Assembly (NCBI GenBank): GCA_947453625.1
Contig: CANGHK010000038.1
Coordinates: 1-48,534 of the forward strand
DNA length: 48,534 bases
Source: Burkholderiales bacterium
GTDB lineage: Bacteria > Pseudomonadota > Gammaproteobacteria > Burkholderiales > Burkholderiaceae_C
Direction of reading: 5' to 3'
Notes under the pieces: generated by a model
Databases searched by the model: none
The model's input: the letters and a program-made list of their open reading frames with translations, nothing else
What the model was told of the DNA's origin: nothing
Shown: piece after piece, positions 15,323 to 48,534 of the stretch
How positions within the stretch are numbered: the stretch's first letter is position 1
Layout of the letters: each line of letters opens with the position of its first letter
Made by a program: the position numbers and the translations under genes

Positions 15323-15354
15323 TCAGGGCGTGATGCGCGGTGCCGTACCGCGGG

Positions 15355-15619
15355 TTGACGCCGATCTGCTCCAAGCGGTCCATGCGGCAGTGAACCGGGT
15401 GGGCCGCGCCAGGTCGCGAGTGGACAGGCGGCGACTGGCAGTGACTGGGCCTGCCCTGGGTTCGCGTCGCCCTTGCGGCGGGATTCCCGAGTCCGCCAGG
15501 AACAACTGCTGAGCCGCCCGCGCTCCAACGCGAGGCTGTGGTTTGCGGCGGGTATCGTCGATCATCCTCTGCTTCCTGATGACAGCCTGCAGGTCAGGGC
15601 CGCGGCCAGATCCAAGCCA
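15355..15619. repeat. long direct repeat, copy 2 (downstream edge of sugar island)
   Basis: The second copy of the roughly 270-bp repeat, starting 33 bases after the acyltransferase stop, in the same orientation as copy 1. Homology starts at TTGACGCC and stops after GATCCAAGCCA in both copies. The minus-strand frame beginning MIDDTRRKPQPRVG is kept here too. Confidence 0.9.
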
Positions 15620-39808: not shown

Positions 39809-40641
39809 CGAGATCACGACTGTTCGCCTGGCTGCGCCGCGACTTGCGCGCCGCCATCAGCCTGGCCTTCCTGCTCGCGCTGGTGCTGCTGGCCTTGTGC
39901 GCGCCCTGGCTGGCCCCCTACCCGGTCACCGCGCAAGACGTCGACAACACCCTGGCCAGCCCGTCGGCACTGCACCTGATGGGCACCGACGACCTGGGCC
40001 GCGACGTGTTCAGCCGCATGGTGCACGGCGCGGCGGCCACGCTCTACGCCAGCGCGCTGGCGGTGGGCATCGCCATCTTGCTGGGCCTGCCGGTGGGCCT
40101 GCTGGCGGGCTTCCTGGGCGGCTGGGTAGACGACGCGATCAGCCGATTCATCGACGCGTTGCTGTCCTTCCCGTCCATCGTGCTGGCGATCGCCGTCACC
40201 GGGGCGCTGGGCATAGGCCTGACCAACGGCATGATCGCGGTCGGCATCGTGTTCTCGCCGCAGCTCGCGCGCCTGGTGCGCGCAAGAGCGCTGGTGGTGC
40301 GCCAGGAGCTGTACGTCGATGCCTCGCGCTGCTTTGGCGCGTCCACCGCGCGCATCCTGTGGCGCCATGTGCTGCCCAACACCGTGCAGCCGGTGATCGT
40401 GCAGGTCACGCTGCTGCTGGCCGCCGCGCTGCTGGCCGAGGCGTCCTTGAGCTTCCTGGGCCTGGGCATACAGCCGCCCGATCCCAGCTGGGGCTCGATG
40501 CTGGCGCGCGCCTACCAGAACATGGAGCTGGCGCCCGAGCAGATGGTCGCCCCCGGGCTGGCCATCTTGCTGACCGCGCTGGCCTTCAACACGCTGGGCG
40601 AGTCGCTGCGCGTGGCGCTGGAACCCACGACGAAACGCTGA
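39805..40641 (+). CDS. ABC importer permease (DppC type), second system
   Basis: A 278-residue permease with HLMGTDDLGRDVFSRMVHGAAATLYA near residue 50. The EAA loop is YVDASRCFGASTARILWRHVLPNTVQPVIVQ, followed by LAEASLSFLGLGIQPPDPSWGSMLARA, all as in DppC/OppC. Completes the second importer; the AMP-binding ligase gene follows after 13 bases, so import and CoA activation are in one operon. Confidence 0.94.
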   Translation: MTRSRLFAWLRRDLRAAISLAFLLALVLLALCAPWLAPYPVTAQDVDNTLASPSALHLMGTDDLGRDVFSRMVHGAAATLYASALAVGIAILLGLPVGLLAGFLGGWVDDAISRFIDALLSFPSIVLAIAVTGALGIGLTNGMIAVGIVFSPQLARLVRARALVVRQELYVDASRCFGASTARILWRHVLPNTVQPVIVQVTLLLAAALLAEASLSFLGLGIQPPDPSWGSMLARAYQNMELAPEQMVAPGLAILLTALAFNTLGESLRVALEPTTKR

Positions 40642-40654
40642 GAGGTTCTTGCCC

Positions 40655-42376
40655 ATGACCGAACAAGCCGACAAGCCCACCGACGAATCCACCTACCTCG
40701 CCACGCTGCACAGCCTGTGGAACAAGGCCTGGCCGGCCGGCGCCAACACCGCGCCGCACTACCCGCACGGCGAACAGTCGGTGACCGAATACCTGCGCAC
40801 CTGGGCCCGCTTGCAGCCGGACAAACCAGCGGTGATCCACTACGGCCACACGCTGAGCTACGCCGAACTCGACGCCGCCAGCGACCGCTTCGCCGCGCTG
40901 CTGGCCGCCCACGGCATAGGCCCCGGCGACCGGGTGGCGGTGTTCCTGCCCAACCTGCCGCAATACCACCTCGTCTTCTTCGGCATCCTCAAGCTGGGCG
41001 CGGTGCATGTGCCGGTCAGCCCGATGTCGCGCGCCTTCGAGCTGGCCCATGAGCTGACCGACACCGGCGCGCTGGCCCTGGTGGCGCTGGACGAGTTGAT
41101 GCCAGTGGTGCGCGAGGTGCGCGCCGAGTCCTCGCTGCGGCAGGTCTTCGTCACCGGATTCGCCGACCTGCTGCCGGCAGAGCCCACCGTGCCGCTGCCC
41201 GAGGCGATGCGCGCGCCCCGCATCGCCTGCCCCGACGCGATCGAGCTGATGCCCGCGCTGGCCGCACAGACAGCGCCCGCGCCCGCCCACCGGCCCGGCC
41301 TGGACGACATCGCCGCGCTGAACTACACCGGCGGCACCACCGGCCTGCCCAAGGGCTGCATCCACACCCAGCGCGACATGCTCTACACCGCGGCGTCGAA
41401 CTTCGGCATCGCGCTGGAGCGGGCTGACGACACGGTGTTCCTCAGCTTCTTCCCGCAGTTCTGGATCGCCGGCGAGAACCTGGGCCTGGTCTTCCCGGTG
41501 TTTTGCGGCGCGACGCTGGTGTTGCTGACGCGCTGGGACCCGGTGGCGGTGATGACGGCGGTGCAGCGCTACCGCGTCACCTGCATGGCGATGCCGGTGG
41601 ACGGCGCGGTCGAGATGATGGATCACCCGCGCTTCGGCGAGTTCGACTTGAGCAGCCTGCGCCAGGTGCGGGTGGTGTCCTTCGTCAAGAAGCTCAACCT
41701 CGATTACCGCCGGCGCTGGCAACAGCTGACCGGCGGCATCCTGGCCGAAGCGGCCTGGGGCATGACCGAGACCCACACCTCCGACACCTTCACCACCGGC
41801 TTCCAGGACGGCGACTTCGACCTGCACGCCCAGCCGGTGTTCGTCGGCCTGCCGGTGCCGGGCACCGAATTCAAGATCTGCGATTTCGAGACCGGCGGCT
41901 TGAAGCCGCTGGGCGAGGACGGCGAGATCCTGGTGCGCACGCCCTCGCTGCTCAAGGGCTACTGGAACAAGCCCGAAGCCACGGCCGAGGCGCTGGTGGA
42001 CGGCTGGCTGCGCACCGGCGACATCGGGCTGATCGACGAGCAAGGCTTTCTGCACTTCCTGGGCCGGCGCAAGGAGATGCTCAAGGTCAAGGGCATGAGC
42101 GTGTTCCCGCCCGAGATCGAGGCCGTGCTGGGCCAGCACCCCGCCGTGCTGGGCTCTGGCGTGGTCGGGCGTGTCGACGCGCAGCGCGGCGAGGTGCCGG
42201 TGGCCTTCGTGCAGCTGAAACCCGAGGCCGATGCCGCCACCGCGGTGCAGAGCCTGATCGATTGGTGCCAGCACCGCATGGCGGGCTACAAGCTGCCCGA
42301 GATCCGCCTGGTCGCGAGCCTGCCGATGACGGCCACCGGCAAGGTCAAGAAGCAGGACTTGAGCGCCCTGCTCTGA
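40655..42376 (+). CDS. AMP-forming acyl-CoA synthetase
   Basis: A 573-residue adenylate-forming ligase. The phosphate-binding loop YTGGTTGLPKGCIHT is near residues 228-242, and WGMTETHTSDTF is the A5 motif. GWLRTGDIGLIDEQGFLHFLGR and the hinge RRKEMLKVKGMSVFPPEIE precede the catalytic-lysine motif TGKVKKQDL. The ATG at 40655 follows AGAGG by about nine bases. Placed directly behind the importer, it probably activates the imported carboxylic acid to its CoA ester. The GNAT fusion upstream could be its regulator by lysine acetylation. Substrate chain length cannot be judged from sequence. Confidence 0.93.
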   Translation: MTEQADKPTDESTYLATLHSLWNKAWPAGANTAPHYPHGEQSVTEYLRTWARLQPDKPAVIHYGHTLSYAELDAASDRFAALLAAHGIGPGDRVAVFLPNLPQYHLVFFGILKLGAVHVPVSPMSRAFELAHELTDTGALALVALDELMPVVREVRAESSLRQVFVTGFADLLPAEPTVPLPEAMRAPRIACPDAIELMPALAAQTAPAPAHRPGLDDIAALNYTGGTTGLPKGCIHTQRDMLYTAASNFGIALERADDTVFLSFFPQFWIAGENLGLVFPVFCGATLVLLTRWDPVAVMTAVQRYRVTCMAMPVDGAVEMMDHPRFGEFDLSSLRQVRVVSFVKKLNLDYRRRWQQLTGGILAEAAWGMTETHTSDTFTTGFQDGDFDLHAQPVFVGLPVPGTEFKICDFETGGLKPLGEDGEILVRTPSLLKGYWNKPEATAEALVDGWLRTGDIGLIDEQGFLHFLGRRKEMLKVKGMSVFPPEIEAVLGQHPAVLGSGVVGRVDAQRGEVPVAFVQLKPEADAATAVQSLIDWCQHRMAGYKLPEIRLVASLPMTATGKVKKQDLSALL

Positions 42377-42440
42377 CGCCCCCGCGCGGCGGCCCACCCG
42401 GGCGCCGCGCCCACCGAACACCCCCACAAGGACCCACCCC

Positions 42441-44000
42441 ATGACCTGGCAACCCGAACTCGACGAACTGGCCAAACGCACCGCGATGGCGCATCAGATG
42501 GGCGGGGCCGACAAGGTCAAGCGCCAGCACGACGCCGGGCGGTTGACCGTGCGCGAGCGCATCACCAAGCTGCTCGACGACGGCAGCTTCCACGAGGTGG
42601 GCGCGCTGTCGGGCATAGGCGAGTACGACGCCGAGGGTCAGATTGCGCAGGTCACGCCGGCCAACTGCGTGTTCGGCCGCGGCAAGATCGCCGGCCGACC
42701 GGTGGTGGTGGTGGGCGACGACTTCACCGTGCGCGGCGGCTCGGCCGACGCCTCCATCGCCGCCAAGCCGCTGATGGCCGAGGACATGGCCAGCGACTTG
42801 CGCTTGCCCATACTGCGCATCATCGAAGGCTCGGGCGGCGGCGGCTCGGTCAAGACCATAGAGACCAAGGGCGCTTCCAACCTGCCCGGCGGCATCGGTG
42901 AGAGCTCGCGCGGCTTCTACAAGATGACGGCCAACCTGGCCGAGGTGCCGGTGGTCGGCCTGGGGCTGGGCTCGGTGGCCGGGCTGGGCGCGGCCAGGCT
43001 GGCCGCCAGCCACTTCTCGGTGATGACGCGCAACTCGGCGATGTTCGTCGCCGGGCCGCCGCTGGTGGCGCGGCTGGGCCAGGCGCTGAGCAAGCAGGAA
43101 CTGGGCGGCGCCGACATCCAGACCAAGAGCGGCGCCATCGACAACATGGTCGAGACCGAGGAACAGGCCTTCGAGCAGGCCCGGCGCTTCCTGTCCTACC
43201 TGCCGCAGTCGGTGCACGGCGTGCCGCCGGTGCTGCCCCGCAGCGACGACCCCGAGCGCGCCGACGAGTTCCTGATGAAGGCCGTGCCGCGCAACCGGCG
43301 CAGCGTCTACAAGATGCGGCCCATCATCGAGTCTGTGGTCGACGCCGGCAGCTTCTTCGAGATGGGCGCCCACTTCGGCCGCAGCATCATCGCCGGCCTG
43401 GCCCGCATCGACGGCCACCCGGTGCTGCTGCTGGCCAGCGACCCCTACCACTACGGTGGCGCCTGGAGTTCAGACACCTGCCAGAAAGTGATCCGCTTCG
43501 TCGACCTGGCCGAGACCTTCCACCTGCCTGTGGTCTACCTGATGGACTGCCCGGGCTTCATGATCGGCCTGGAGGCCGAGCGCAGCGCCACCATCCGGCT
43601 GGGCGTGCGGGCGATGGCGGCGATGAGCCAGACCACCGTGCCCTGGTGCACGGTGATCGTGCGCAACGCCTTCGGCGTGGCCGGCGCCGCGCACAAGCCC
43701 TTCAACCGGCTGTCGCTGCGCTATGCCTGGCTGTCGGCCTACTGGGGCAGCCTGCCGCTGGAAGGCGGCATCGAAGCCGCCTACCGCGCCGACATCGAGG
43801 CCGCGGACGACCCCAAGGCCGAGTTGCTGCAGATCGAAGCCCGCTTGAACGCGCTGCGCTCGCCGTTTCGCAGCGCCGAGAAGTTCTGGGTCGAGGAGAT
43901 CATCGACCCGCGCCAGACCCGCCGCCTGCTGGTCGACTTTGCCCACCTGGCCGAGCCCTTGCGCACCCCGGGCAAGGCCAGTTTCTCGATGAGACCCTGA
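42441..44000 (+). CDS. acyl-CoA carboxylase carboxyltransferase (beta) subunit
   Basis: A 519-residue biotin-dependent carboxyltransferase of the propionyl/methylcrotonyl/geranyl-CoA carboxylase beta type. The N-terminal ADKVKRQHDAGRLTVRERI, VGDDFTVRGGSADASIAAK, IEGSGGGGSVKTIETKG, and the C-terminal VYLMDCPGFMIGLEAERSATIR and RNAFGVAGAAHKPFN fit the two ClpP/crotonase-fold halves and their oxyanion loops. AAGGA lies upstream of the ATG. Only this subunit is present with a separate biotin carrier at 33922-34146; no biotin carboxylase was found. It may borrow a carboxylase from elsewhere or act as a transcarboxylase/decarboxylase. The acyl-CoA substrate is not clear. Confidence 0.92.
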   Translation: MTWQPELDELAKRTAMAHQMGGADKVKRQHDAGRLTVRERITKLLDDGSFHEVGALSGIGEYDAEGQIAQVTPANCVFGRGKIAGRPVVVVGDDFTVRGGSADASIAAKPLMAEDMASDLRLPILRIIEGSGGGGSVKTIETKGASNLPGGIGESSRGFYKMTANLAEVPVVGLGLGSVAGLGAARLAASHFSVMTRNSAMFVAGPPLVARLGQALSKQELGGADIQTKSGAIDNMVETEEQAFEQARRFLSYLPQSVHGVPPVLPRSDDPERADEFLMKAVPRNRRSVYKMRPIIESVVDAGSFFEMGAHFGRSIIAGLARIDGHPVLLLASDPYHYGGAWSSDTCQKVIRFVDLAETFHLPVVYLMDCPGFMIGLEAERSATIRLGVRAMAAMSQTTVPWCTVIVRNAFGVAGAAHKPFNRLSLRYAWLSAYWGSLPLEGGIEAAYRADIEAADDPKAELLQIEARLNALRSPFRSAEKFWVEEIIDPRQTRRLLVDFAHLAEPLRTPGKASFSMRP

Positions 44001-44107
44001 ATCCCCCCCGAAGCGCCTTCGGCGCCGCCCCCCGGGGGGCCGAGCCCGGACAGACAAGGTCCAGTGGACCTTGTCTGCCTGGCGAGGAGTCGGGCTGCCA
44101 AGCCCGA
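44001..44107. repeat. cluster of palindromes (mosaic intergenic element)
   Basis: Three inverted repeats follow each other. CCCCCCGGGGGG (44028-44039) lies beside CGAAGCGCCTTCG. A palindrome with 13-bp arms CAGACAAGGTCCA/TGGACCTTGTCTG and a single central G spans 44051-44077. TCGGGCT-GCCA-AGCCCGA spans 44090-44107. No T-run follows any of them, so these are more like REP/mosaic elements than terminators. Confidence 0.75.
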
Positions 44108-44204
44108 CGCGGCCTGCAAGGCACGCAAGCGGCCCGGCAAAGCCGGTTCCGTGGCGGCTGCTTGAGGGAACAGCCCGCTACGCCGAATTGAATGGAGTGA
44201 CCCC

Positions 44205-45035
44205 ATGAGCGACACCGACGTTCTCTACGAAGTCTCCCAGCGCATCGCCACGATCACGCTGAACCGGCCCGACCGGCTCAACGCCTACACCGCCGGGCTG
44301 GGCGACGCGCTGCGCGCGGCCGTGCGCCGGGCCACCGACGATGCCGGCGTGCGGGTGATCGTGCTGACCGGCGCCGGCCGGGGGTTTTGCGCCGGTGCCG
44401 ACATGGACAACCTGAGCGCCGGCACGGCCAGCGGCGGCGCGTCGCTGGCGGCCGAGAACCCCAAGGCCGAGCCCGCGCCGTTCGACCCGGACAGCAGCCT
44501 CGACTACCAGACCCCGCACTCCTACTTTCCGGCCGTTCCAAAACCCATCATCGCGGCGATCAACGGCGCCTGTGCCGGCCTGGGTCTGGTCTACGCGCTG
44601 TACTGCGATCAGCGCTTCGCGGCGGCCGGCGCCAAGTTCACCACCGCTTTTGCGCGCCGCGGCCTGATCGCCGAGCATGGCATCAGCCACACGCTGCCGC
44701 GCCTGGTGGGCCTGGCCAAGGCGCTGGACCTGCTGCTGTCGGCGCGCAAGTTCGACGCCGACGAGGCCCTGCGCCTGGGCCTCGTCGACCGGGTGCTGCC
44801 GGCCGCTGAACTGATGTCCGCGGTGCGCGCCTACGCGCTGGACCTGGCCGACAACGTTTCGCCCAGGGCCATGGCGGTGATCAAGCGCCAGCTGTGGGCG
44901 GTGGATCAGCAGTCCTTGCGCGAGGCGATAGCGGTCGGCAACCGCGAGATGCTGGCCAGCTTCGCCACCGAGGACTTCAAGGAAGGCGTGGCCCACTTTG
45001 TCGAGAAGCGTCCCGCGGCCTTCACCGGACGCTGA
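44205..45035 (+). CDS. enoyl-CoA hydratase/isomerase family protein
   Basis: A 276-residue crotonase-fold protein. The oxyanion-hole segment GAGRGFCAGADM is near residues 61-72, and INGACAGLGLVYALYCD follows near 120. The second catalytic-Glu position is present in IAEHGISHTLPRLVG, but the first Glu (normally in the GGG.E helix) is not seen. So hydratase activity is less sure than for a standard EchA; isomerase or hydrolase activity is possible. GGAG precedes the ATG. The stretch between the two conserved regions (about 73-105) is longer than usual. Part of the same catabolic cluster. Confidence 0.88.
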   Translation: MSDTDVLYEVSQRIATITLNRPDRLNAYTAGLGDALRAAVRRATDDAGVRVIVLTGAGRGFCAGADMDNLSAGTASGGASLAAENPKAEPAPFDPDSSLDYQTPHSYFPAVPKPIIAAINGACAGLGLVYALYCDQRFAAAGAKFTTAFARRGLIAEHGISHTLPRLVGLAKALDLLLSARKFDADEALRLGLVDRVLPAAELMSAVRAYALDLADNVSPRAMAVIKRQLWAVDQQSLREAIAVGNREMLASFATEDFKEGVAHFVEKRPAAFTGR

Positions 45036-45107
45036 AACCGGACGCTGAAGACCGATGAACCGGCCCCCTCCAACCCATGACGCTGCACAGCGCACCCAGG
45101 CCACACG

Positions 45108-47561
45108 ATGAGCACTGACACCCCCCTGCCGCTGGCCGGCATCCAGGTGCTGGAGATAGGCGGCGGCGCTGCCGGCGCCTATTGCGGCCGGCTGCTGGCC
45201 GACGCCGGCGCCACCGTGCGCGTCACCGCGCTGGACGATCGCCACAGGCTGGCCGGCATCGTTCGCGCCGACACGCCCGCCGAACAGGCCTATGCGGACT
45301 ACCTGGGCGCTGGCAAGCTGCAGTTGCCGGCGCTGGCGGACCTGGCAGCACTGCAGGCCTCGAGCCGGCAAGCCGACCTGGTGATCCTGGGCGAGGCCGT
45401 GGACGGGTCGGCTGGCGGAGAAGCCGGCGCCACGGCGCTGCTGACAACGCCCCGGCTGGCCAGCATAGACCTGTCGTGGTTCGGCCCGCGGGGCGACTAC
45501 CGGCACTGGCGCGGCAGCGACCTGGTCGTCCAGGCCCTGACCGGCATGCCGCAGATGGCCGGCGCGGTGGACGGGCCCCCGCTGGCCGCCGGCGACCGCC
45601 AGGCCACCACGCTGGGCGGCGTCACCGCCTATATCGCCGCCTGCGCGGCCTTGCTGGGCGCGTCACGCCAGCCCGCCAACTCGCCGCGCCGACTGGCCGT
45701 CTCCATACTCGAAGCCAACCTGGTGATGGCCGAGATGCACATGTACTTCTTCGACAAGGATGGCTTGCCGATGAAGCGCTGCGGAATCAACCGCTTCGCG
45801 CCCAACAGCCCGGTAGGCATCTACCCCTGCCAGTCGGGTTGGGTCGGCATCACCGTGGCCACGCCCGACCAGTGGCGCGGCCTGTGCCGGGCCTTGGGGC
45901 TGGAGGCGCAGTCAAGGGACGAAGGCCTGGCCACGCGCGAGCTTCGCTTCGGACGGCTGGACGAGGTGGAGGCGGTGCTGTGCCAGGCCCTGGCGGCCAG
46001 GACCGCCGACGAATGGGCAGCCATAGGCCGGCAGCACCGGGTGCCCATCGTGGTGGTGCCCGACGCGGCCGGCATCCTGTCGCACCCGATATTCGAGGAC
46101 CGCCAGTCGCTGGCCGAGTTGCGCAGCGGGGGCCAGCGGGTGCTGGTGCCGCGCACGCCGTTCGGCCTGACCGCCACGCCGATACGCACCCGGCTGGAGC
46201 CGCCCCTGGCAACTGCGCCGGCGCCCGAACCGGACACCAGCCTGGCGGCTGCGGCGCCGCGCGCCACCGACGCTGCGGCCTCGCCCACCGCCACCGAGCC
46301 CCCGCTGCAAGGCATCGTGCTGGTCGATTTCGCCATGGGCTGGGCCGGTCCGCTGGCCAGCCGGCTGATGGCCGACCTGGGCGCCGAGGTGTTGAAGATC
46401 GAGGCCGGACGCTACCCCGACTGGTGGCGCGGCATGAACTGGACGCCCGAGTTCATCGAGGGCCGACAATTTGAACTGGCCACCATCTTCTGCGGCCTCA
46501 ACCGGGGCAAGCGCGGCGTCAGCCTCGACCTGACCACGCCGGCCGGCCGCGACCTGGCGCTGCGCCTGGTGGCCGGCGCCGACGCGGTGGTCGAGAACCA
46601 GGCCGCCGGCGTGATGGCCAAGTTCGGTCTCGATTTCGCGCAACTGGTGCAGGCCCGTCCCGACCTGGTGATGGTCTCGATGTCGGCCTTCGGCACCGGC
46701 AACGCCTGGTCGGACACCCGTGCCTACGGCTCCACGCTGGAGCAGGGCTGCGGCCTGCCCAGCATGACCGGCGTGGCCGGCACGGCGCCGACGATGACCC
46801 ACCTGGCCCATGGCGACCCGGTGGGCGGGCTCTACGGCTGCGCGGCGCTGTTGACGGCGCTGGTGCACCGCAAGCGCAGCGGCGCCGGCCAGTACGTCAA
46901 CCTCAGCATGGTCGAGGCCATGCTGCAGCTGACGACACCCGGCCTGCTGGCCCACCAGGTGGCGCCGGACGCGCCGCTGCGCAACGCCAACCGCCGCGCC
47001 AGCCTGGCGCCGCATGGCCTGTACCCGGCCGCCGGCGTCGACCAGTGGCTGGCGCTGGCCGTCGACAGCGCCGAGGCCTTTGCCGCGCTGGCCCAGGTGC
47101 TGGGCCGCCCCGAATGGGCACATGATGCGGCGCTGGGCAGCCTGGCAGGCCGCCAGGCCCGCGAAGACGAGATCGACGCGGCCATCTCGGCCTGGAGCCG
47201 CCAGCACCCGCCCGAACAGGCCGCCGCAAGGCTGCAGGCTGCGGGCGTGATGGCCGCGGGCCTGCAGCATGCGCAGCACCTGGCGGCCAACGCCCACCTG
47301 GCCAGCGCCGACTTCTACATCGACCTGGACCGCGCGCTGTCCGGCCCGCAGCGCCAGGCCGGCGTGGCCATCCTGCAGAGCGACCAGCGCCTGGGCGCCC
47401 GCCAGCCCGCGCCGCTGCTGGGCGAGCACAGCTGGCAGGTGCTGCAGCGCCATGCCGGGCTGTCGCAGGCGCAGTTCGACGCGCTGGTCCATGACGGCGT
47501 GATCAGCCTGTCGCCCAAGCCCGAGCGCAACCTGGTGACGGCACCGATCCCGGGCGGCTGA
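45108..47561 (+). CDS. tandem-fused class III CoA-transferase (CaiB/Frc family)
   Basis: An 817-residue protein made of two CaiB/Frc-type halves. The first (residues 1 to about 395) begins LAGIQVLEIGGGAAGAYCGRLLADAGATV. The second (about 400-817) begins LQGIVLVDFAMGWAGPLASRLMADLGAEVLKIE and is closer to the family, with LNRGKRGVSLDLTTPAGRDL and HRKRSGAGQYVNLSMVEAM. The GD positions that align with the catalytic Asp are near residue 163 (AAGDRQA) and near 569 (HGDPVGG). Single-domain enzymes are about 400 residues and act as interlocked dimers, so one chain could form the whole dimer. It probably moves CoA between carboxylic acids of the pathway. Confidence 0.9.
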   Translation: MSTDTPLPLAGIQVLEIGGGAAGAYCGRLLADAGATVRVTALDDRHRLAGIVRADTPAEQAYADYLGAGKLQLPALADLAALQASSRQADLVILGEAVDGSAGGEAGATALLTTPRLASIDLSWFGPRGDYRHWRGSDLVVQALTGMPQMAGAVDGPPLAAGDRQATTLGGVTAYIAACAALLGASRQPANSPRRLAVSILEANLVMAEMHMYFFDKDGLPMKRCGINRFAPNSPVGIYPCQSGWVGITVATPDQWRGLCRALGLEAQSRDEGLATRELRFGRLDEVEAVLCQALAARTADEWAAIGRQHRVPIVVVPDAAGILSHPIFEDRQSLAELRSGGQRVLVPRTPFGLTATPIRTRLEPPLATAPAPEPDTSLAAAAPRATDAAASPTATEPPLQGIVLVDFAMGWAGPLASRLMADLGAEVLKIEAGRYPDWWRGMNWTPEFIEGRQFELATIFCGLNRGKRGVSLDLTTPAGRDLALRLVAGADAVVENQAAGVMAKFGLDFAQLVQARPDLVMVSMSAFGTGNAWSDTRAYGSTLEQGCGLPSMTGVAGTAPTMTHLAHGDPVGGLYGCAALLTALVHRKRSGAGQYVNLSMVEAMLQLTTPGLLAHQVAPDAPLRNANRRASLAPHGLYPAAGVDQWLALAVDSAEAFAALAQVLGRPEWAHDAALGSLAGRQAREDEIDAAISAWSRQHPPEQAAARLQAAGVMAAGLQHAQHLAANAHLASADFYIDLDRALSGPQRQAGVAILQSDQRLGARQPAPLLGEHSWQVLQRHAGLSQAQFDALVHDGVISLSPKPERNLVTAPIPGG

Positions 47562-47754
47562 GCCGGCGCCGCTGGGCGCTAGACCGAGGTCGGGGCATTG
47601 CTGCAGGCCGTTGGCGTCGATGCGCGGGCGGCGCTGCCGGCCCAAGAACGCGGCGCCGTCAGCCATTTCTCCAGGAATGGAGTATCGAACGCCGGGCCGA
47701 CCCAGGACCTGAGTTCGGCGGCGTCAAGCTGCAAGGCCCGGGCTGTGCAGTCGC

Positions 47755-48039
47755 TCAGCGTCGCCAGCTCTGCCGATCTGAAATGGCCAGGCTGCGCCGG
47801 CCGAGTTCGCGTCCCAGCGCGGCATGTCGCTCGGCATTGGCGCTGTCGTCGAGAGCCTGGCTGAAGGTATTGCAGGCGATGATGCAGGCGCTGCAGTCCA
47901 CCCGGTGGCACCGGTGGGCGGCGGCCAGCGCGGGGCTGACCTGGCCCACCCGCAGCGTGAACGGCGCGTCGCCGAGCACCCGGTACCCGGTCTCGCGGTA
48001 GGCCTGCGCGGTGCCGGGGTCGATGCTCGATTCAGACAA
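47755..48039 (-). CDS. DUF3293 protein, C-terminally truncated
   Basis: A 94-residue product whose residues 5-85 match DUF3293: AYRETGYRVLGDAPFTLRVGQVS, then CSACIIACNTFSQALDDSANAERHAALGREL. Usual members are about 130-150 residues and continue with a GEDP..W region and a Q-N-A strand; here the frame ends early (DRQSWRR, stop) and the missing part is not visible in other frames. So it may be a truncated or dying gene. Translation starts at a TTG at 48039, with the Shine-Dalgarno-like GGAGGG sitting inside a terminator hairpin just upstream. Function of the family is unknown. Confidence 0.7.
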   Translation of the reverse strand: MSESSIDPGTAQAYRETGYRVLGDAPFTLRVGQVSPALAAAHRCHRVDCSACIIACNTFSQALDDSANAERHAALGRELGRRSLAISDRQSWRR

Positions 48040-48040
48040 G

Positions 48041-48065
48041 AAAAAGCCCTCCTATCTGGGAGGGC
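48041..48065 (-). terminator. intrinsic terminator overlapping the ribosome-binding site
   Basis: Minus strand: GCCCTCC-CAGATA-GGAGGGC followed by TTTTTC. The 7-bp perfect stem and T-run fit rho-independent termination. The 3' arm contains GGAGGG, 7 bases before the TTG start, so the same hairpin could also hide the ribosome-binding site. Confidence 0.75.
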
Positions 48066-48159
48066 CGACGCTGCTCCCGCTGGATTGCCCTTGAAGGGCC
48101 GCATCCGCTGTCGCGTGTCCACCTTGCCCGGGAGGGCAGGTTGGCGTGGGCGTCGGCCC
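48041..48159 (-). ncRNA. candidate structured leader RNA upstream of the DUF3293 gene
   Basis: On the minus strand a 10-bp closing stem pairs 48150-48159 with 48062-48071 (GGGCCGACGC with GCGTCGGCCC, no mismatch). Inside are two hairpins: one at about 48121-48143 (CCT.GCCC-GGGC.AGG stem) and one at 48082-48106 with a GCCCTT-C-AAGGGC core closed by a GGAT/ATCC stem. An intrinsic terminator follows that shares four bases with the closing stem. This three-way layout with a competing terminator is what a riboswitch or attenuator looks like. I could not match it to TPP, FMN, SAM, cobalamin, yybP-ykoY, glycine, guanidine, ZTP, fluoride or GEMM consensus cores. A terminated small RNA is the alternative. 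Confidence 0.55.
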
Positions 48160-48318
48160 CACTCTGGATGCTGGCGGCATGGCAACTGAAGTGACTGTGC
48201 ACCCAGGCTCACCAGGTGAGTTCGTCGCACAAGATGGCCTGGCAAGGCCGTTCCTGCTGGGCGGTGTTGCCGTGGATGCTTGCAGGCTGCAGGCGTCGGG
48301 ACCATGCCAAGGCCGTGC

Positions 48319-48534
48319 CTACGCGGGATGTCGGCTGTTGGCGCCGAACTGGAAGACCGCCTGCACGCAACAACGCCCGATCTGCGCGGCGACCTCGCCG
48401 AAATTCGGCAGTGGCGCCGACGTGGACTCGTCCATGTACAGAGCCCGGTTCACCTCCACCATCACCGCTGCCACGCGGGAGTCGGTCTCGAAATGGGCGC
48501 TCGGGACGAGCGCCCCCGCAAACGGGCTGTCGAC
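48319..48534 (-). CDS. N-formylglutamate amidohydrolase, C-terminal part (partial)
   Basis: Reading from the window edge on the minus strand, 71 residues end at a TAG at 48319-48321. DSPFAGALVPSAHF, then VAAVMVEVNRALYMDE, are the C-terminal hallmarks of N-formylglutamate amidohydrolases (HutG-type). These enzymes release formate and glutamate in one branch of histidine catabolism. The start and N-terminal two-thirds lie beyond the window, and no histidine-utilisation neighbours are visible, so a related amidohydrolase role is possible. Confidence 0.85.
   Translation of the reverse strand, partial: VDSPFAGALVPSAHFETDSRVAAVMVEVNRALYMDESTSAPLPNFGEVAAQIGRCCVQAVFQFGANSRHPA

What the first reader, a model, noticed from the sequence alone, without database searches (positions are those of the whole stretch)
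48041..48159. Possible new cis-regulatory RNA in front of a DUF3293 gene
The minus strand shows a perfect 10-bp closing stem, two internal hairpins, and a classic intrinsic terminator that shares bases with the closing stem and contains the Shine-Dalgarno sequence. The two states are mutually exclusive over four base pairs, the logic of a transcriptional/translational switch. No known riboswitch core was recognised. The downstream family has no known function, so the ligand could reveal its role. The geometry is seen in the sequence; the switching is inferred.
Basis: partly seen in the sequence, partly recalled or inferred. Interest (0 to 1): 0.8.

Follow-up and report, generated by a model that had tools for sequence, protein, structure and literature searches.

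The report
SAM-I/IV riboswitch before truncated DUF3293 gene
The RNA switch that looked new is a member of a known class that senses the methyl donor S-adenosylmethionine (SAM); related bacteria use the same switch to control a gene of unknown function and sometimes a spare SAM synthetase, so the unknown gene probably belongs to SAM metabolism.

Summary
Window 48176-48071 (-) matches Rfam RF01725, the SAM-I/IV riboswitch (55.4 bits, cut-off 41.1, E 1.5e-8). Its "closing stem" is the antiterminator. In 29 aligned homologues, aptamer, antiterminator and terminator each covary, and a base shared by the last two changes with both partners in 4 of 29. Inferred: SAM folds the aptamer, the antiterminator cannot form, and a terminator holding the Shine-Dalgarno shuts the gene off. 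DUF3293 is truncated here (94 of about 142 aa). The arrangement recurs: 39 of the 80 best-matching DUF3293 loci have this aptamer 25-60 nt before the first aligned codon. Of 40 aptamer-bearing loci, 10 have metK downstream, a second copy in 5 of 5 genomes checked. Side leads: a SAM-II/V-like pseudoknot in relatives, and a PII-like DUF3293 fold whose best PDB matches are SAM lyases, statistically weak.

The parts
48071..48176 (-). SAM-I/IV riboswitch aptamer (whole model, positions 1-99)
   Evidence: Rfam RF01725, 55.4 bits, E 1.5e-8; own model R1 99.2 bits, the only hit in the window (the window is one of the 28 rows R1 was built from)
48101..48171 (-). P1 helix, GCATC 48171-48167 with GATGC 48105-48101; J1/2 at 48166-48163
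   Evidence: Rfam alignment; 92.4% of cells paired in 29 homologues, 2 of 5 pairs with changes on both sides
48146..48162 (-). P2 hairpin; its 5' half and loop double as the antiterminator 5' arm
   Evidence: 4 of 6 pairs with changes on both sides
48119..48144 (-). P3 hairpin with the CCAACC / AAGGTGG strands
   Evidence: all 8 pairs invariant in 29 of 29, so no covariation to judge it by
48106..48115 (-). P4 mini-hairpin
   Evidence: 3 of 3 pairs in the window by sequence; 75.6% of cells paired in homologues
48087..48099 (-). P5 hairpin
   Evidence: 93.9% of cells paired, 2 of 4 pairs with changes on both sides
48075..48133 (-). Pseudoknot between the P3 loop (48133-48129) and the 3' tail (48079-48075)
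   Evidence: 5 of 5 pairs in the window; 88.3% of cells paired, 3 of 5 pairs with changes on both sides
48062..48159 (-).
   Evidence: 96.5% of cells paired in 29 homologues, 3 of 10 pairs with changes on both sides, slid controls at most 57.3%
48041..48065 (-). Intrinsic terminator: stem 48065-48059 / 48052-48046, then T5
   Evidence: 96.6% of cells paired in 29 homologues, 2 of 7 pairs with changes on both sides
48048..48052 (-). Shine-Dalgarno GGAGG inside the terminator 3' arm, 8 nt before the TTG start
   Evidence: sequence
47755..48039 (-). Truncated DUF3293 gene (TTG start, 94 aa); homology to intact proteins ends near 47776-47788
   Evidence: Pfam PF11697 20.8 bits, profile 3-34/73; intact SAM-linked relatives 141-152 aa; tblastn finds no convincing match to the C-terminal third in 40001-48534

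Best explanation
The element is a SAM-I/IV riboswitch (RF01725) with a transcription-terminator expression platform. With little SAM, the 5' half of P2 (48159-48150) pairs with 48071-48062, the antiterminator; this takes four bases from the terminator, so RNA polymerase reads into the gene and the Shine-Dalgarno is not held in the terminator. With SAM bound, P1, P2, P3 and the P3-loop pseudoknot fold, the P2 strand is no longer available, the terminator forms, transcription stops, and any transcript that escapes has its Shine-Dalgarno in the stem. It is thus an OFF switch for a DUF3293 gene, which makes DUF3293 a SAM-repressed gene in a number of Burkholderiales. In this genome the gene has lost its C-terminal third, so the switch here stands before a remnant. 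Shown: class membership, architecture, covariation of both states, recurrence before DUF3293. Inferred: SAM binding, the direction of the switch, use in vivo.
For: RF01725 over the gathering score, full length. In 29 aligned homologues 93.0, 96.5 and 96.6% of aptamer, antiterminator and terminator cells are paired; slid controls give 31-46, 27-57 and 31-67%, and the covariation score beats 500 of 500 shuffles in each. At the position shared by antiterminator and terminator, C-G-C becomes T-A-T in 4 of 29. Nucleotides that I align with the SAM pocket are invariant in 29 of 29: G13, A14, C34, A35, A36, C37, T56, G57, G58 (SAM-I residue numbers from passages of PMC6890682; the correspondence is mine). 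The same aptamer ends 25-60 nt before the first aligned DUF3293 codon in 39 of 80 best-matching named loci, is adjacent in 13 sites of the genome samples, partly the same genomes, and lies before 7 of 11 plasmid-borne DUF3293 genes. metK is downstream in 10 of 40 aptamer-bearing loci; four other SAM-I/IV sites of the order stand before an ORF that reads by eye as MetK.
Against: No binding or expression data. The whole-segment minimum-energy fold does not show the terminator; whole-segment and aptamer z are modest (-2.01, -1.61). Some shuffle measures are unimpressive: further pair types 105/500 (aptamer) and 370/500 (antiterminator), pairs with both-side change 59/500 (terminator). The structures were taken from the window and Rfam, which favours them over slid versions. 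The 29 rows are a selection from 53 sites; the 24 left out include divergent ones whose platforms I did not test. Two rows (L017, L076) break two antiterminator pairs; 8 of 29 lack a standard outermost P1 pair. The gene is truncated here. No sigma-70-type promoter found by the simple scan.
Confidence: 0.93

Rival explanations
1. A relic: the riboswitch sequence is intact by descent but no longer matters, because the DUF3293 gene behind it is truncated.
For: The protein ends at 94 aa and lacks the C-terminal third, including positions E102 and Q124, which are invariant in the 54 PF11697 domains examined. A near-identical copy (93.6% over 377 nt) sits at the end of contig C11, its gene cut by the contig end.
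Against: P1, pseudoknot and antiterminator pairs are all standard in the window. Six differences from the C11 copy fall in the aptamer, yet the checked P1, pseudoknot and antiterminator pairs are standard in both copies.
Confidence: 0.4
2. A SAM-I/IV-like fold whose ligand is not SAM but a related compound.
For: DUF3293 and several other downstream genes have no known link to methionine metabolism: four small or mid-sized neighbours tested had no Pfam match beyond none at E 0.1 (L181, L237, L171, L177; also L191).
Against: Pocket nucleotides are invariant in 29 of 29, and metK stands in the DUF3293 operons of 10 of 40 aptamer-bearing loci.
Confidence: 0.04
3. A new riboswitch class.
For: None left once the full element is searched.
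Against: RF01725 at E 1.5e-8, full length.
Confidence: 0.01
4. A plain terminator of the upstream gene (FGase-like fragment 48319-48534) with no switching.
For: The terminator folds well on its own.
Against: Covarying antiterminator and aptamer; in the 15 DUF3293-linked rows an open DUF3293 frame starts 26-39 nt behind the aptamer end, right after the terminator (starts were sought in that interval).
Confidence: 0.02

Closest known systems
SAM-I/IV riboswitch, Rfam RF01725 (SAM-I-IV-variant of Weinberg et al. 2010, PMC2864571, passages seen)
   Same: Full-length covariance-model match; uninterrupted P2, P4, P5 and a P3-loop to 3'-tail pseudoknot, as passages of PMC6890682 describe for SAM-I/IV
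   Different: Here the antiterminator is made from the P2 5' half, the start codon follows the terminator directly, and the target is DUF3293; I did not survey the platforms of other RF01725 members
SAM-I (S-box) terminator riboswitches
   Same: SAM OFF logic by antiterminator/terminator exchange (PMC4239095 passages); common ligand core (PMC6890682 passages)
   Different: SAM-I has an internal loop in P2 (PMC2864571 passages) and lacks PK-2 (PMC6890682 passages)
SAM-IV riboswitch
   Same: PK-2 and P5
   Different: SAM-IV has split P2a/P2b and PK-1 and lacks P4 (PMC6890682 passages)
SAM-II / SAM-V riboswitches and the Pelagibacter SAM-II/SAM-V tandem (side element in relatives, not in the window)
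   Same: The second element has an H-type pseudoknot (as SAM-V, abstract of PMC6061858) and GAUUU, UUGC, GCUAAA segments next to a Shine-Dalgarno; the likeness of these segments to SAM-II is recalled
   Different: Below Rfam thresholds (best SAM_V 34.6 of 41, best SAM_alpha 19.3 of 36; nothing at E up to 3 when longer loci were searched); stands behind a SAM-I/IV terminator or between genes
Phage SAM lyases (T3 SAMase PF23780, Svi3-3), for intact DUF3293 proteins of relatives
   Same: PII-like fold; among the best PDB matches; an invariant Glu at the end of the loop corresponding to the T-loop and Gln in that corresponding to the B-loop
   Different: No sequence-level match; Foldseek E at best 3.1e-3 and only 0.36 with a second model

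Membership tests
SAM-I/IV riboswitch (RF01725) | Covariance-model score above the gathering score | tested here: met
   55.4 vs 41.1 bits, model 1-99/99
SAM-I/IV riboswitch (RF01725) | Uninterrupted P2, P4 present, P5 and PK-2 present | tested here: met
   All present in the window apart from one G-A position in P2 and one in P3; P2, P5 and PK-2 covary, P4 is weaker (75.6% of cells); definition from passages of PMC6890682
SAM-I/IV riboswitch (RF01725) | No PK-1 (P2 loop to J3/4) | not tested
   -
SAM-I/IV riboswitch (RF01725) | Conserved SAM-pocket nucleotides | tested here: met
   Invariant in 29 of 29 aligned elements; mapping to SAM-I residues is mine
SAM-I/IV riboswitch (RF01725) | Binds SAM and discriminates against SAH | not testable with these tools
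   needs in-line probing
New riboswitch class | No match to any known RNA family | tested here: not met
   RF01725 match
DUF3293 (PF11697) | Pfam gathering score, full domain | tested here: not met
   Window protein 20.8 of 25 bits, profile 3-34/73: a truncated relative. Intact relative L178 scores 83.9 bits
SAM lyase (PF23780) for intact DUF3293 proteins | Sequence match to the family | tested here: not met
   No PF23780 match at E up to 0.1 for intact DUF3293 L178; T3 SAMase hits PF23780; hhalign against T3 SAMase, probability 2%
SAM lyase (PF23780) for intact DUF3293 proteins | PII-like fold closest to SAM lyases | tested here: inconclusive
   Model 1: PDB ranks 1-5 are SAM or SAM-AMP lyases (7ock chains of 149 and 152 residues taken as its SAMase), best E 3.1e-3, none at 1e-3. 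Model 2: rank 1 is a 7ock SAMase chain at E 0.36, with PstA and ribosomal proteins interleaved; 6zm9 not in the top 50. Viral library: annotated SAM hydrolases at E 5.0e-4 and 2.9e-3
SAM lyase (PF23780) for intact DUF3293 proteins | Catalytic Glu at the T-loop C-terminus and Gln in the B-loop | tested here: inconclusive
   E102 and Q124 are 54 of 54 in the PF11697 domains examined (24 of 24 loci and the 30 best) and lie in loops of matching topology; roles from passages of PMC7877911 and PMC12255297. Spacing differs (22 residues here; 35 and 37 there). No superposition was possible

The most novel reading that the evidence does not exclude
In a number of Burkholderiales this riboswitch heads a SAM-starvation operon of DUF3293, a second SAM-II/V-like switch, and in some a spare SAM synthetase (metK). 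DUF3293 is a cellular member of the SAM-lyase branch of the PII-like fold: either a lyase acting on SAM or a related sulfonium compound, or a SAM-binding partner of the spare MetK, as T3 SAMase binds MetK. Because the switch would turn the operon on when SAM falls, and T3 SAMase destroys SAM and traps MetK (abstract of PMC8406200), the operon could be a rescue or counter-measure against SAM depletion. The lyase and phage steps are conjecture.
Probability: 0.25. Interest if true: 0.78.

Novelty: new member of a known kind. Interest (0 to 1): 0.5.

Why it matters
The switch class is known, so the RNA itself is not a discovery. What it adds is a place in metabolism for a protein family described as of unknown function: DUF3293 is repeatedly the first gene behind a SAM-sensing switch and sometimes sits beside an extra SAM synthetase, and its model resembles SAM-degrading or PII-like SAM-binding proteins. 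That makes its role directly testable with simple assays. The pairing of SAM-I/IV with a SAM-II/V-like element in relatives would be a riboswitch combination that I did not find in the passages seen, if SAM binding is confirmed.

Tried and rejected
New riboswitch class: rejected by the RF01725 match. Clan relatives SAM-I and SAM-IV: RF01725 was the only family reported for 47900-48350 at E up to 1; the tool hides lower-scoring overlapping clan matches. Intact DUF3293 elsewhere: no PF11697 match at E up to 0.001 in G000; in window 40001-48534 tblastn finds residues 1 to 82-89 and nothing convincing of the rest. SAM-II/V-like element in this window: none; a whole-genome search with R2 was empty, though that search has no control; a variant by pattern stands behind the C102 site (L003). 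Integron attC origin of the repeated 60-nt downstream motif: considered because it recurs before successive genes, dropped when it proved to be a covarying H-type pseudoknot beside a Shine-Dalgarno. Phage origin of DUF3293: no match in 50,697 phage records, although the best viral structure match is a DUF3293 protein of an uncultured phage. Defence annotation: no PADLOC match at E up to 0.01 for DUF3293 or for three of four neighbours tested; one SNF2 helicase neighbour (L172) matches defence helicase models. DUF3293 profile against PDB sequences: nothing below E 0.26. PHROGs and NCBIfam: no match for DUF3293.

Full report
What is there. On the minus strand, 48176-48071 is a full-length match to Rfam RF01725, the SAM-I/IV riboswitch (55.4 bits, gathering score 41.1, E 1.5e-8). 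It is the only Rfam family over threshold in the 48.5-kb window.

Anatomy. P1 48171-48167/48105-48101; P2 within 48162-48146; P3 48144-48119; P4 48115-48106; P5 48099-48087; pseudoknot 48133-48129 with 48079-48075. This is the architecture that passages of PMC6890682 give for SAM-I/IV (unsplit P2, P4; PK-2 with P5). Antiterminator: 48159-48150 with 48071-48062. Terminator: 48065-48059 with 48052-48046, then T5. GGAGG at 48052-48048, TTG start at 48039.

Is it conserved? I aligned 29 elements (15 before DUF3293, 14 before other genes), 29 of the 53 sites, chosen by me; divergent and contig-edge sites were left out. The aptamer has 93.0% of cells paired, 12 of 31 pairs with changes on both sides, and slid controls at 31-46%. 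The antiterminator has 96.5%, 3 of 10 pairs with both-side changes, slid 27-57%. The terminator has 96.6%, 2 of 7, slid 31-67%. In each, no shuffle of 500 reached the observed covariation score or percentage paired; other measures are weaker (further pair types 105/500 for the aptamer and 370/500 for the antiterminator; pairs with both-side change 2/500, 7/500 and 59/500). The structures were taken from the window and Rfam, which favours them over slid versions. The position shared by antiterminator and terminator reads C-G-C in 15, C-G-T in 4, T-A-T in 4 and other combinations in 6 of 29. That a base changes together with both of its alternative partners is what a switch between two structures predicts. 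Against: two rows (L017, L076) lose two antiterminator pairs while keeping P2, and 8 of 29 rows lack a standard outermost P1 pair.

The gene. The ORF 48039-47755 is a truncated DUF3293 (20.8 bits, cut-off 25, profile 3-34 of 73). Intact SAM-linked relatives have 141-152 aa; homology ends at residue 82-89. The genome has two more RF01725 sites: a copy at the end of contig C11, 93.6% identical over 377 nt and cut by the contig end within DUF3293, and a divergent one on C102 before an ORF that by eye resembles a MoxR-type AAA ATPase of a relative (L194, PF07728). No PF11697 match at E up to 0.001 occurs in the genome. Only this genome of 21 searched in the genus has RF01725.

The arrangement in other bacteria. 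In a sample of 299 family genomes, 16 have RF01725 (21 sites) and 22 have PF11697; 7 sites in 5 genomes have a PF11697 match directly behind the aptamer, besides the two own copies whose genes are truncated or cut. In 399 order genomes, 28 including the own one have RF01725 and 100 have PF11697; 6 of 32 sites outside the own genome are adjacent. Of 43 PF11697 loci without an adjacent RF01725 hit that I checked with a core pattern, one had the core, and it lay downstream; so DUF3293 genes without this switch are the commoner case in the samples. Among 80 named loci, the best of 256 relatives of SAM-linked DUF3293 (so not an unbiased sample), 40 have the aptamer; in 39 it ends 25-60 nt before the first aligned codon (one of them, L230, a weak 32.9-bit match) and in L203 it is downstream. 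They include Paucibacter, Tepidicella xavieri, Variovorax, Limnohabitans, Cupriavidus, Paraburkholderia, Pararobbsia and Caballeronia, plus MAG contigs labelled as other groups whose binning I cannot judge. Several of these are the same genomes as in the samples. Of 11 plasmid records with DUF3293, 7 have the element just upstream; the two I fetched (Polaromonas naphthalenivorans pPNAP04, Paraburkholderia sp. PGU19) are confirmed by model R1.

Link to SAM synthesis. A MetK homologue lies downstream on the same strand in 10 of 40 aptamer-bearing loci (L163 and L164 are near-identical). Of the 40 others, 3 have one in the locus: in L201 directly downstream, in L202 and L235 a 29%-identical match on the other side of DUF3293. 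One of the downstream proteins, L180, is a full MetK by Pfam. Five of the genomes with metK in such an operon were checked and each has two metK genes; of five other genomes, four have one and one (G264) none. In L085-L087 and L091 the ORF behind the aptamer reads by eye as MetK. These loci are related by descent, so the counts are not independent.

A second switch in the relatives. Behind many SAM-I/IV terminators, or between DUF3293 and the next gene, there is a pseudoknot of about 63 nt with GAUUU, UUGC and GCUAAA segments and a Shine-Dalgarno at its end. In 27 selected rows it covaries strongly (94.9% of cells paired, 6 of 11 pairs with both-side changes, slid at most 56.9%). Rfam sees it only weakly (SAM_V 34.6 of 41, SAM_alpha 19.3 of 36 at best in 19 short loci; neither at E up to 3 in six longer loci). 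Model R2 finds it in 29 of 40 aptamer-bearing and 2 of 40 other DUF3293 loci and not in the window. I read it as a SAM-II/V-like translational switch; SAM binding is inference. Twelve passages of PMC12452182 (contiguous riboswitches) showed no SAM-I/IV plus SAM-V pair, and passages of PMC2704228 list a SAM-II/SAM-V element of Pelagibacter.

What DUF3293 might be. AlphaFold models of two intact proteins (pLDDT 93.8 and 93.7) have a core that I read as PII-like. For the first, the five best PDB matches are SAM or SAM-AMP lyases, led by 6zm9 at E 3.1e-3, and none reaches 1e-3. For the second, the best match is a SAMase chain of 7ock (in complex with MetK) at E 0.36, mixed with PstA and ribosomal proteins, and 6zm9 is not among the 50 listed. 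In the viral library the first match is a phage DUF3293 protein (E 5.4e-11); annotated SAM hydrolases appear at E 5.0e-4 and 2.9e-3 among unnamed proteins. Passages of PMC7877911 and PMC12255297 name a Glu at the end of the T-loop and a Gln in the B-loop as the structurally shared active-site residues. In DUF3293, E102 and Q124, at topologically matching places, are 54 of 54 in the domains examined, but their spacing is 22 residues against 35 and 37. Sequence gives no link. I therefore treat the lyase reading as a lead, not a result. It also raises a puzzle: an OFF switch would make a SAM-degrading enzyme when SAM is scarce. A different substrate, a sensor role or a MetK partner (T3 SAMase binds MetK; abstract of PMC8406200) would fit better. 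The window copy lacks both residues.

Literature. DUF3293 occurs in 0 papers of the library; SAM-I-IV in 3, of which I saw passages of two (PMC2864571; PMC12452182) and the listing of the third. Passages of PMC4239095 reconstruct methionine regulons of Comamonadaceae, Burkholderia and others with other motifs; SAM-I/IV was not mentioned in the passages seen. Searches for SAM lyase with PII-like and DUF, and for riboswitch, SAM, metK and Paraburkholderia together, found nothing. Supplementary files were not searchable, so an earlier mention of this gene context in the 2010 supplement cannot be excluded.

Verdict. A real, conserved SAM-I/IV riboswitch in front of a decayed DUF3293 gene: a new member of a known kind. 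The interest lies in what the relatives say about DUF3293.

Noticed in passing
L141 17-84 (+), L140 12-81 (+), L073 941-1004 (-), L077 1401-1463 (-) and others; not in the window: A covarying SAM-II/V-like pseudoknot behind SAM-I/IV terminators or between genes in Burkholderiales, below Rfam thresholds: a possible new tandem riboswitch combination (SAM-I/IV plus SAM-II/V-like).
   Followed up: partly
L073 and L163-L165, L168, L180, L182, L184, L200, L216, L229: metK downstream of riboswitch-controlled DUF3293; the five such genomes checked have two metK genes each.
   Followed up: partly
L003 1408-1470 (-), L088 1408-1470 (-), L009 1028-1091 (-): A second sub-type of the pseudoknot (GAGTT...ACTTGC...GCTAAAGCG) before MoxR-like AAA ATPase genes (by eye), including one in the window's own genome (contig C102).
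   Followed up: no
L077 about +107 nt, L082/L084 about +87 nt after the SAM-I/IV aptamer: Other genes behind SAM-I/IV in the order look like an O-acetylhomoserine sulfhydrylase (L077) and a beta-carbonic anhydrase (L082, L084); names by eye from the sequence, not tested.
   Followed up: no
G000 contig C11 103888-103993 (L046 11889-11994): Second near-identical copy of the riboswitch and DUF3293 start at a contig end; Paucibacter sp. B2R-40 has three full copies (L174-L176), so the unit occurs in several copies in some genomes.
   Followed up: partly
L241 444-869: DUF3293 behind a SAM-I/IV aptamer in Caballeronia terrestris has an in-frame stop, another decayed copy.
   Followed up: no
window 15326-15418 (-): ARAGORN reports a tRNA with a four-base anticodon (gccg) and no amino acid; the Rfam scan of the window reported no tRNA, so it is probably spurious.
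   Followed up: no
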